Shown piece by piece: positions 23,872 to 26,488 of a DNA stretch of 33,784 nucleotides (position 1 is its first letter; the number at the start of each line of letters is the position of its first letter). Source of the stretch: an uncultured Methylococcaceae bacterium (GTDB lineage Bacteria; Pseudomonadota; Gammaproteobacteria; Methylococcales; Methylomonadaceae). The stretch spans positions 1-33,784 of the forward strand of contig CAJAWH010000109.1 in the NCBI GenBank assembly GCA_903945605.1. Direction: 5' to 3'. A program made the translations under genes and the position numbers. The notes below the pieces were generated by a model. The model did no database searches. It was given only the letters and a program-made list of their open reading frames with translations, and had not been told where the DNA came from.

Positions 23872-25116
23872 ATGGCAAAATTAAACAAATTCAATTCCGC
23901 CCACAGCGGATTGGGCGGTTTTCTGAACAGCATACAAACACTTTTTGTGGGGGTATTGCGGGTTTGGTCAATACCTATTGTGCTCATGCTCAGCATTGCA
24001 TCCGGCTTCACCACTTACTACGGCCTGTCTTTTTTCATCACCCCGTGGATTGCCTTGGTCATCACCATTGCCATACAATCCATCATCGTCATCTGCTCGC
24101 TGGAAATAGCGGGTATGCATTGGCAAGCCAACCGTTTCCGCTATTTGAGCGTAGTGGTTTCTTTGCTGGTGGCCATTTCCGCATCGATCACTTTCTCTTA
24201 TTTTAAATTTTATGAGGTTTCAGAAAGCGATACCTTGCAGATTAACCGGATCAACGAAATCCGCACCAGCGTCAATGACTATTTGGGACAGATACTTGCT
24301 GTAAAAAGCACCCTGCTCAAGACACAAAACGCTGAATTGAATAAAGCCAGGATTGACATGGGCCAAGCTTATTTTGGCACTCATGCCGAAGTACCCCCAG
24401 CCCTAAAGAACATCGTCGGCGAAGGCCCGTTTTGGAAGCATTACAACCAACGCTACCAAGATAAAAAAGAACAGTTCGCACGGGTGGAAAATGAATTCAA
24501 AAATTTGGATGCCAGTATCCAAGCGTTGCAAAGCAACCTGAACCAATTGGAGCTTGACCCCGAAGACCAGTACCGCAAAATTGTCGACAATTTGCAGACA
24601 GTGCAGATGCAATTCAACCATGTGGCGACCAATGCCGGCATCAATGTTCCCCAACCGTTAGTCTTGATGACCTATGCCCAGTTTTCACAAGGCGTGACCC
24701 CATCATTTGCAATGTGGCAAAATTTCTCTTTGTTCGCTTTTTTGTGCGCGGCCATGGTCGATTTTTTCACTTTTTTACTGTCTTACCGCCTGGAATCCAC
24801 GGCACCAGGGCCATTGAACGAGGAAGAACAAGAGTTGGCCTTTGAGTGCTTGCGGCAATTTTCTGACTATAAGATCAACCAAAATGACGAACTGGAAATT
24901 ATTATCGAGAAGACCGACCTGGAACGGGCCCGCCGCTATTCTGACTGGTCACGCATGTTTGCCGTTGGTTTTTTACTGAGCCGTGGCTTCCTGAGAAAAA
25001 TTGACAAACGCACGGTAGCCTTCGCACCCAACCTTTATCCATTAATAGCGCAAAAAATGAATGCCAAAATCCGCGCCTTTAAAAATGCATCAACCGCTCG
25101 GAATGAACTTAAATAA
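23872..25116 (+). CDS. Membrane protein with a coiled-coil loop (gene A of an uncharacterised pair)
   Basis: A 414-residue protein of unknown function. Three hydrophobic helices lie at about 31-51, 54-77 and 92-112. Then comes a hydrophilic helical region (about 118-280) with heptad-like stretches (DKKEQFARVENEFKNLDASI), a fourth helix at about 284-304, and a cytoplasmic tail of about 110 residues. With the N-terminus inside, the coiled-coil region would face the periplasm. The layout resembles DUF4407-type proteins, but I cannot confirm membership. Gene B begins 10 bases later, and its AAGGG ribosome site overlaps this gene's stop, so the two products are probably made together. A 445-base divergent region lies upstream. 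Confidence 0.75.
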   Translation: MAKLNKFNSAHSGLGGFLNSIQTLFVGVLRVWSIPIVLMLSIASGFTTYYGLSFFITPWIALVITIAIQSIIVICSLEIAGMHWQANRFRYLSVVVSLLVAISASITFSYFKFYEVSESDTLQINRINEIRTSVNDYLGQILAVKSTLLKTQNAELNKARIDMGQAYFGTHAEVPPALKNIVGEGPFWKHYNQRYQDKKEQFARVENEFKNLDASIQALQSNLNQLELDPEDQYRKIVDNLQTVQMQFNHVATNAGINVPQPLVLMTYAQFSQGVTPSFAMWQNFSLFAFLCAAMVDFFTFLLSYRLESTAPGPLNEEEQELAFECLRQFSDYKINQNDELEIIIEKTDLERARRYSDWSRMFAVGFLLSRGFLRKIDKRTVAFAPNLYPLIAQKMNAKIRAFKNASTARNELK

Positions 25117-25126
25117 GGGCTTAACT

Positions 25127-26488
25127 ATGGACAACGCAACCTACACAATAGAAAACTGGCTAAGTGTGTTTGACGGTGCGCAGGATAAGGGCCTAGAAGT
25201 ATGGGATCCTGGCTTTGATGGCGACCGCTGCCTAGTGGTTGCCAAATTTGGGCCTTTTGCCCGGAAATTTGCCCGTCCGCCCGCATTTGTGGCCACTTTT
25301 TGGCACCGCATTTACCCTTTACCCATAGAAAATTGGCAAATCAGTTTTGATACACCTCTTTATGGCGGTTTTTGTACACTGACCACTCATCTGCATATCC
25401 TGTTCCAACCAACCATTGAGTTTGCCAAACGCACCCTAGAAGCCGCCCCAAACTTTAACAATCATATCAAAAACAATTACTACGGCTTACTGATGGACAT
25501 TATCACTGCCGAGTTGTGTAAACTGGATAATGACCACACTTGGTTGGACAATGGCTTGCATCCTGTTGAGCGGCAAATTGCCACGGCAATTAATGAAATC
25601 ATGATAATACGGGGCATCCAATGCCGCGCCCGCTGCTTGATAAGCCCAGTGTTTGATTTACCGGATGATCCGTTGGCAAGTGACGATGGGTTTACCCATT
25701 CGGACGTGTATAAGCATGTGAGCCACAAGCGCTTTGCATTCCGCCAGCAAAAGGAGCAGGAACTGCTTAAGCAACAAGTGCTGCTTGAACAATTGCGGGT
25801 TGAACACCAGCAAGCGATGCTGGAAATCATCAACGAGGAAGATGAACTGGAACGCAAAAAACAAGCCTTGGAAGCCGAAGCGGCCATGCGGCAACTGGAA
25901 GAAAAAAGGATTCAACGGCTGGAGCGCAATGCCATGCAATTGAGCCTCCATGAAGACCAAGTGAACCATAAGCTACAGCAGAAAACTTATGAATTCACCA
26001 AAGAAGCGCAACTACTGAAAAAACAGCAAAACTTGGAACATCGGGTGCAATTGGAAATACAAGCCGAACAAGTGGCGCATGATCTGTTGATGAAAAAAAA
26101 GCAGCGTGAAAATGAGCTGATCTGTTTTGAACAAAACCGCCTGCAATTGCTGCAAGCCAAAGACCATGAAGAGCAGATCAGGCAAATTGAAATACAAACC
26201 CGCTTAAAAAAACAAGAAATTGTGCAAACTGAACAATTTAAATTAGCCGAGCGGCTGGAAGCCAAAAAACTTAACCACGAGGCACGGCTTAACGAGATGC
26301 AAATACAAGCCGAGTTGAAAATATTGGAGATGCGTGCTGAAGCAACGAAAAATAAAGACAGCTTCTTACGGAAAGAAATTGAATGGTTGGTGTTGGATAA
26401 ACGGCGTGCGGAATTGACCCGGGCGATCAGAGCCGCCAACCAAGATGCCGTGATACCCGATGAGGCTGATCCTAAACCACCCCTTTAA
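25127..26488 (+). CDS. SPFH-like domain plus long coiled coil (gene B of an uncharacterised pair)
   Basis: A 453-residue soluble protein. Residues about 35-177 follow the pattern of an SPFH/Band-7 domain: beta strands ([20 protein letters not shown]), a helical part ([20 protein letters not shown]) and the closing helix-strand block [20 protein letters not shown] followed by [12 protein letters not shown]. Residues about 195-440 are almost unbroken charged coiled coil rich in Q, E, K and A, as in flotillins. No membrane helix is present, so contact with the membrane would come through gene A. ATG 25127 is preferred over an upstream in-frame ATG at 25061 because AAGGG (25115-25119) sits 7 bases before it. 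The SPFH reading is pattern-based. purB follows 64 bases later. Confidence 0.7.

What the first reader, a model, noticed from the sequence alone, without database searches (positions are those of the whole stretch)
23872..26488. Two-gene membrane-scaffold operon: multi-helix coiled-coil protein plus SPFH-like coiled-coil protein
Gene A has three N-terminal membrane helices, a long loop with coiled coil and a fourth helix. Gene B is soluble with what I read as an SPFH/Band-7 domain and about 245 residues of coiled coil. The ribosome site of B overlaps the stop of A, so they are made together. SPFH proteins normally carry their own membrane anchor; here it seems to be supplied in trans. Neither protein matches a system I know. 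Roles in membrane microdomains, envelope stress or phage defence are all open.
Basis: partly seen in the sequence, partly recalled or inferred. Interest (0 to 1): 0.7.

Follow-up and report, generated by a model that had tools for sequence, protein, structure and literature searches.

The report
Methanotroph SPFH scaffold gene pair
Two adjoining genes, found so far only in one order of mostly methane-eating bacteria, appear to encode a soluble membrane-scaffold protein of the prohibitin/flotillin kind and a multi-helix membrane partner that probably holds it at the membrane; their role is unproven, but they are candidates for organising these cells' inner membranes.

Summary
Gene A (23872-25116, 414 aa) has four hydrophobic segments with a long helical loop between the third and fourth. 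Gene B (25127-26488, 453 aa) has none. AlphaFold2 gives B residues 1-256 a fold whose top 30 PDB rows are all SPFH entries (prohibitin, erlin, flotillin, HflK/C, stomatin, QmcA), followed by about 250 residues of predicted coiled coil. No sequence profile finds this.

The pair is a strict unit. In 121 related genomes A occurs in 70 and B in 71; A never without B; adjacent in 69 of 70. B's start overlaps A's stop in 78 of 79 named loci, while flanking genes differ. It is in 71 of 104 genomes with the methylotrophy marker Fae and 0 of 17 without; class and phylum samples gave no convincing match outside the order.

Best model: a cytoplasmic SPFH/coiled-coil oligomer held at the inner membrane by A. 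B. subtilis YdjI, recruited by YdjG/YdjH, is a published precedent, so anchoring in trans is not new; the subfamily, partner and range appear new. A bolder reading, organisation of the intracytoplasmic membranes that house methane monooxygenase, stays open, but 33 of 104 Fae-positive genomes lack the pair. Defence is not supported.

The parts
23872..25116 (+). Gene A: 414-aa polytopic membrane protein; hydrophobic segments at residues 24-42, 59-77, 91-109, 285-303; helical loop about 112-284; conserved C-terminal part about 305-414
24784..25113 (+). C-terminal part of A, probably cytoplasmic, well conserved; element order like a winged helix in a model of moderate confidence; no Pfam match
   Evidence: sidedness is inference from weak charge bias
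25115..25119 (+). AAGGG, ribosome-binding-like, overlapping the stop of A
   Evidence: read directly
25127..26488 (+). Gene B: 453-aa SPFH/coiled-coil protein without a hydrophobic segment
25217..25696 (+). SPFH domain of B, about residues 31-190
   Evidence: AlphaFold2 pLDDT 83.2 for residues 1-256; Foldseek rows 1-30 all SPFH entries; VIA Z 10.2
25697..26446 (+). Predicted coiled coil of B, about residues 191-440, ending in [14 protein letters not shown]; the motif is missing from the short Methylomonas forms looked at (L088, L092, L102)
   Evidence: only residues up to 256 were modelled

Best explanation
A and B form a two-component membrane scaffold. B folds into an SPFH domain with a long coiled coil and, like its structural relatives, probably assembles into a large oligomer on the cytoplasmic face. 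Having no anchor of its own, it is recruited to the inner membrane by A, most likely through A's conserved C-terminal part. A's periplasmic (or intracytoplasmic-membrane lumenal) helical loop would sense or bridge on the other side. Shown here: SPFH fold by prediction, absence of a hydrophobic segment in B, four in A, a strict pair with overlapping start and stop in relatives, restriction to one order in the collections searched. Inferred: oligomerisation, A-B contact, membrane sidedness, scaffold function. This model is about the machine; rivals 1 and 2 are about what it serves and can be true together with it.
For: B's domain model: pLDDT 83.2, pTM 0.66. Foldseek: 50 of 102 rows were shown; rows 1-30 are all SPFH entries, best E 1.2e-5, including all 17 with E <= 0.001; the first other fold is row 31 at E 0.55. 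VIA: PHB1/2 Z 10.2, rmsd 13.8 over 198 residues; stomatin SPFH domain Z 8.3, rmsd 3.6 over 110. No hydrophobic segment in B, four in A. Pairing in 121 genomes: 70 hold both, 1 holds B only (match starts at base 6 of its contig), 0 hold A only; adjacent on one strand in 69 of 70. B follows A in 79 of 80 named loci, the exception being at a contig end; B's start overlaps A's stop in 78 of 79. Neighbours are not conserved: 33 families over 76 upstream and 38 over 74 downstream neighbours. Precedent: YdjI needs YdjG and YdjH (PMC8581546, passages).
Against: No direct evidence that A binds B. B is not found by the Band_7 profile in its own genome, nor by any Pfam model above cut-off. VIA Z values near 8 also occur for dihydroneopterin aldolase and ribosomal proteins, so the SPFH assignment rests on Foldseek's ranking and the domain-plus-coil order. 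The model of A is moderate (pLDDT 70.8, pTM 0.42), with no PDB row at E <= 0.001. Automatic hydropathy segment counts in A's 80 relatives range from 4 to 9, with only 10 at exactly 4, so four is settled for the window protein only.
Confidence: 0.6

Rival explanations
1. The pair organises the intracytoplasmic membranes or pMMO of type I methanotrophs: A spans the membrane, its helical loop spaces the lumen of a lamella, and B coats or links the cytoplasmic faces.
For: B is in 71 of 104 genomes with Fae and 0 of 17 without, although 13 of those 17 carry AMO-family genes. Kept in endosymbiont records (L116, L133, L135). How these membranes form is stated as not known (PMC9445010, passages).
Against: 33 of 104 Fae-positive genomes lack the pair, including 17 of 20 in the window's genus; 14 of those 17 have AMO-family genes. 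One of them, G007, fits Methylovulum psychrotolerans by size, a cultured obligate methanotroph (PMC5854766, whole text). The 17 Fae-negative genomes are only two genera, so the association is few independent events. Flanks were not annotated systematically; in 8 of 80 named loci a Fae-like gene (my reading) lies downstream, in one group only, and none was recognised as pmo.
Confidence: 0.17
2. An envelope-stress or membrane-protein quality-control module like HflK/C-FtsH or the Psp-linked YdjGHI, not tied to methane oxidation.
For: Nearest structural rows include HflK/C, prohibitin and QmcA. In 13 of 80 named loci the pair lies downstream of a degP-like gene, 12 of them with an rpoE-like gene further up (gene names are my reading of sequences).
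Against: Those 13 loci are exactly one 13-row clade of the tree of A. A has no NfeD match and the unit no third conserved gene. Restriction to one order is not explained.
Confidence: 0.3
3. An anti-phage defence system.
For: Patchy presence inside a genus, and a tree that puts the window copy far from that of Methylovulum miyakonense.
Against: No PADLOC match; no confirmed relative of B in viral contigs or plasmids, none of A in plasmids or phages; varied flanks with several housekeeping genes by my reading; kept in endosymbiont records. Flanks were not scanned with PADLOC.
Confidence: 0.04
4. A is a membrane-bound regulator: its C-terminal part is a winged helix and B modulates it.
For: Order helix-strand-strand-helix-helix-strand-strand in residues 317-384; CRP-type chains at Foldseek rows 30, 42, 46 and 50, E 0.7-1.
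Against: Those rows are not significant; no Pfam match for the C-terminal 110 residues in 4 of 4 proteins tested; the putative recognition helix (DWSRMFAVGFLLSR) is hydrophobic, which suits protein contact better than DNA (inference).
Confidence: 0.06

Closest known systems
B. subtilis YdjI with YdjG/YdjH (pspA-ydjGHI operon; PMC8581546)
   Same: Soluble SPFH protein without its own anchor, encoded beside membrane proteins needed for its membrane localisation (passages)
   Different: YdjI has a zinc-finger motif near its C-terminus and its operon includes pspA; here there is one partner, about 250 residues of predicted coiled coil in B, and no third conserved gene. Sequences of the two systems were not compared.
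Prohibitin, HflK/HflC, QmcA, erlin, stomatin and flotillin scaffolds
   Same: Predicted fold of SPFH domain followed by a long helix
   Different: Classic members carry an N-terminal hydrophobic stretch (PMC2636767); B has none, and window A matches no NfeD model
Soluble SPFH8 and SPFH9 subfamilies (PMC2636767)
   Same: SPFH proteins without a predicted membrane segment (passages)
   Different: Described as small groups without documented members; their sequences were not compared
DUF4407 (PF14362)
   Same: Similar order of membrane helices, coiled coil and a last helix by eye; 14 of 23 A proteins match at E <= 1
   Different: Below the curated cut-off wherever a bit score was shown; of 3 Pseudomonadota genomes with an over-cut-off DUF4407 gene, no SPFH-like neighbour was seen by eye, but in one (L157) the downstream side was not held

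Membership tests
SPFH superfamily (gene B) | SPFH fold | tested here: met
   Foldseek rows 1-30 all SPFH entries, best E 1.2e-5; VIA Z 10.2, rmsd 13.8 over 198; predicted model only
SPFH superfamily (gene B) | Band_7 sequence profile | tested here: not met
   PF01145 finds 3 places in the window's genome, none is B; no Band_7 match at E <= 1 for B or the other members of A2, 18 scanned. A divergent SPFH group that most programs miss is described (PMC2636767, passages)
SPFH superfamily (gene B) | C-terminal coiled coil | tested here: met
   Helix 192-255 in the model, which ends at 256; residues 191-440 without Pro or Gly, rich in Glu, Gln and Leu; no dedicated coiled-coil predictor run
SPFH superfamily (gene B) | N-terminal membrane anchor (most, not all, subfamilies) | tested here: not met
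   No hydrophobic segment in the window B; in 2 of 79 relatives (L126, L138) one, at residues 145-171, inside the SPFH domain
SPFH superfamily (gene B) | Ring or cage oligomer at a membrane | not testable with these tools
   No complex prediction available
SPFH-NfeD operons | NfeD-type partner | tested here: not met
   No NfeD model among the 10 Pfam matches of window A at E <= 1, nor among the 25 of 73 families shown for its relatives
YdjGHI-type trans-anchored SPFH | Soluble SPFH protein beside a membrane-protein gene | tested here: met
YdjGHI-type trans-anchored SPFH | pspA in the same operon | tested here: not met
   No third gene family in more than 13 of 81 loci, window included; a PspA search itself was not run
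YdjGHI-type trans-anchored SPFH | Membrane partner needed for localisation | not testable with these tools
   Needs microscopy of deletion strains
DUF4407 (gene A) | Profile match above cut-off | tested here: not met
   13.9 bits against 31.3 for window A; 14 of 23 A proteins match at E <= 1, best 2.4e-6 without bit score shown; highest of 6 full-length relatives 19.9 bits
Anti-phage defence systems (PADLOC) | Match to a listed model | tested here: not met
   0 families for both proteins at E <= 1

The most novel reading that the evidence does not exclude
A and B are a dedicated scaffold of the intracytoplasmic membranes of type I methanotrophs: the helical loop of A spaces the lamella lumen and the SPFH/coiled-coil oligomer of B shapes or stacks the cytoplasmic faces that carry pMMO arrays.
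Probability: 0.15. Interest if true: 0.85.

Novelty: new variant of a known kind. Interest (0 to 1): 0.55.

Why it matters
It adds an SPFH subfamily that sequence profiles miss, with a strict membrane partner, in an order of methane-oxidising bacteria. How their internal membranes arise is stated to be unknown (PMC9445010, passages). The pair gives two concrete genes to delete and to localise, and the window's own genus is a natural comparison, with 3 of 20 genomes holding the pair and 17 lacking it.

Tried and rejected
Sequence routes to B's fold: Pfam, NCBIfam and PDB sequence searches gave nothing above cut-off or below E 0.03 (lowest E for a B protein 0.021). DUF4407 for A: weak only. Three Pseudomonadota genomes with over-cut-off DUF4407 genes were read by eye: no SPFH-like neighbour, but the downstream side was visible in two only. 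Empty-site test: purB matched in all 20 genomes of the genus, in two of them only partly or weakly; no locus of another genome except G017 showed the window's flanking genes within the stretch held, so no clean site with and without the pair could be shown. Indel periodicity of B's coil: no clear 7- or 11-residue pattern. Promoter-like sites: 5 found, 4.8 expected; terminator-like sites: 11 found, 4.4 (sd 2.3) expected, not followed up. Rfam: only a tRNA. VIA rows for A look like generic helical bundles. Papers: the listings showed no report of this pair by title or start of abstract; they cover open-licence papers only.

Full report
Observation. Two genes on the + strand, A (23872-25116) and B (25127-26488), sit between an unrelated membrane protein and purB (purB is my reading of the sequence). 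A has four hydrophobic segments and B none. AAGGG overlaps A's stop, 7 nt before B's ATG.

Fold of B. Sequence profiles fail: no Pfam, NCBIfam or PADLOC match above cut-off, none for the 18 members of alignment A2, and the Band_7 profile finds three other places in this genome but not B. AlphaFold2 on residues 1-256 with 75 sequences gave pLDDT 83.2 and pTM 0.66. In Foldseek against the PDB (50 of 102 rows shown), rows 1-30 are all entries of SPFH proteins or their complexes, starting with human prohibitin at E 1.2e-5; the first other fold is row 31 at E 0.55. VIA gives PHB1/2 Z 10.2 (rmsd 13.8 over 198 residues) and the stomatin SPFH domain Z 8.3 (rmsd 3.6 over 110); unrelated folds reach about Z 8, so Foldseek's ranking carries the case. 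Residues 191-440 hold no Pro or Gly and the model has a helix at 192-255; the rest of the coil was not modelled.

Gene A. Invariant columns cluster in the membrane helices and the C-terminal 110 residues. A weak charge bias is compatible with both ends being cytoplasmic and the long helical loop periplasmic (inference). The model is moderate, pLDDT 70.8 and pTM 0.42, with no PDB row at E <= 0.001. Of 23 A proteins, the window's included, 14 match DUF4407 at E <= 1, best 2.4e-6; the highest bit score shown is 19.9 against a cut-off of 31.3. The order of elements in residues 317-384 resembles a winged helix; no Pfam model matches that part in 4 of 4 proteins.

Pairing. Among 121 genomes (own plus 120 relatives), A is in 70 and B in 71. 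All 70 with A have B; the one B without A begins at base 6 of its contig. A and B are adjacent on one strand in 69 of 70; in the other (G054) they lie on different contigs, and in one of the 69 (G064) A is itself split over two contigs. In 80 named loci (best 80 of 153 found) B follows A in 79, and the last ends 131 bases after A's last sense codon. B's start overlaps A's stop in 78 of 79, both with the longest reading frame and with the in-frame ATG nearest A's stop; the window and its nearest relative, with a 10-base gap, are unusual. Immediate neighbours of at least 100 aa, window included, belong to 33 families over 76 upstream and 38 over 74 downstream places, so the pair itself is the unit. 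A and B identities correlate across 74 loci (Spearman 0.70, 2701 pairs), as expected of any two co-inherited genes.

Distribution. Record titles are Methylococcales, their symbionts or loosely labelled MAGs, plus one titled Bacteroidetes (L140), which I take for mis-binning because its A falls inside a Methylococcales clade. The window's order is thus read from these titles. Class samples: A in 3 of 369 genomes plus 2 weak partial matches, B's domain in the same 3 of 339, all three in the window's order. Phylum sample: only the window's genome among 398, plus 3 weak partial matches. No confirmed relative of B in viral contigs or plasmids, or of A in plasmids and phages. B against the phage collection and A against viral contigs were not run.

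Link to methanotrophy. Within the 121 genomes, Fae (PF08714) occurs in 104 and AMO-family genes in 103. B is in 71 of 104 Fae-positive and 0 of 17 Fae-negative genomes (Fisher p 4.5e-8). The 17 are one genus of 15 and one of 2, so the p-value ignores shared ancestry; I suspect the larger is Cycloclasticaceae, from recall only. Against the link, 33 Fae-positive genomes lack the pair, including 17 of 20 in the window's genus, also by a profile search in which 3 of the 17 gave only weak coil matches (E 0.003 to 0.42). Fourteen of those 17 have AMO-family genes. One of them, G007, fits Methylovulum psychrotolerans by size (PMC5854766, whole text). Records of animal endosymbionts retain the pair (L116, L133, L135).

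History. The window's A groups with uncultured Methylococcaceae (9-row set 95/87) inside a set that holds Methylobacter and Crenothrix records (27 rows, 99/93), while Methylovulum miyakonense's A lies in the other half of the tree, although the purB proteins of the window and G019 are 86% identical. M. miyakonense's row is one of the long branches whose place the tree program calls unsure. Transfer within the order, or ancient copies with losses, would explain this; I did not separate them.

Known systems. In B. subtilis, YdjI lacks an anchor and needs YdjG and YdjH for membrane localisation (PMC8581546, passages). Of twelve SPFH subfamilies described in 2009, two seem soluble and all others have predicted N-terminal membrane regions (PMC2636767, passages). 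So a soluble SPFH protein anchored in trans is a known arrangement; this subfamily, partner and taxonomic range appear new within the searches named in Tried and rejected.

Verdict. A new variant of a known kind. The scaffold model is likely but the physical interaction is untested. The intracytoplasmic-membrane reading is attractive because how those membranes form is stated to be unknown (PMC9445010, passages), but frequent absence from Fae-positive genomes keeps its probability low.

Noticed in passing
window 30015-30500 (-) and 30421-30861 (-): A nucleotidyltransferase (PF18765) beside an ORF that reads like a HEPN/DUF86 protein: a possible MNT/HEPN toxin-antitoxin pair. The HEPN part was not scanned.
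   Followed up: partly
window 29515-29982 (+): Arg/Gly/Tyr-rich, probably secreted protein of 155 aa; no Pfam match, whose scan began at 29518, one codon inside this frame.
   Followed up: partly
window 31312-33576 (-): Large protein of 754 aa with a phosphoesterase domain (PF04185).
   Followed up: partly
window 21873-23426 (-) and 27986-29518 (+): Two hydrophobic, probably membrane proteins on either side of the pair and purB, with no Pfam match at E <= 0.001.
   Followed up: partly
genus of the window, 20 genomes: The three genomes with the pair hold 2-4 Band_7 matches, the 17 without hold 3-6. Genome size and split genes confound this; no conclusion.
   Followed up: no
L088, L092, L102 (Methylomonas-type loci): Short B proteins, about 360-380 aa in the longest frame, which lack the usual C-terminal motif.
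   Followed up: no
L140: A record titled Bacteroidetes holds the pair, probably a mis-binned Methylococcales contig.
   Followed up: partly
window 23400-26700: Terminator-like sites are more frequent than in shuffles (11 against 4.4, sd 2.3), one of them at 23897-23918 just inside A.
   Followed up: no
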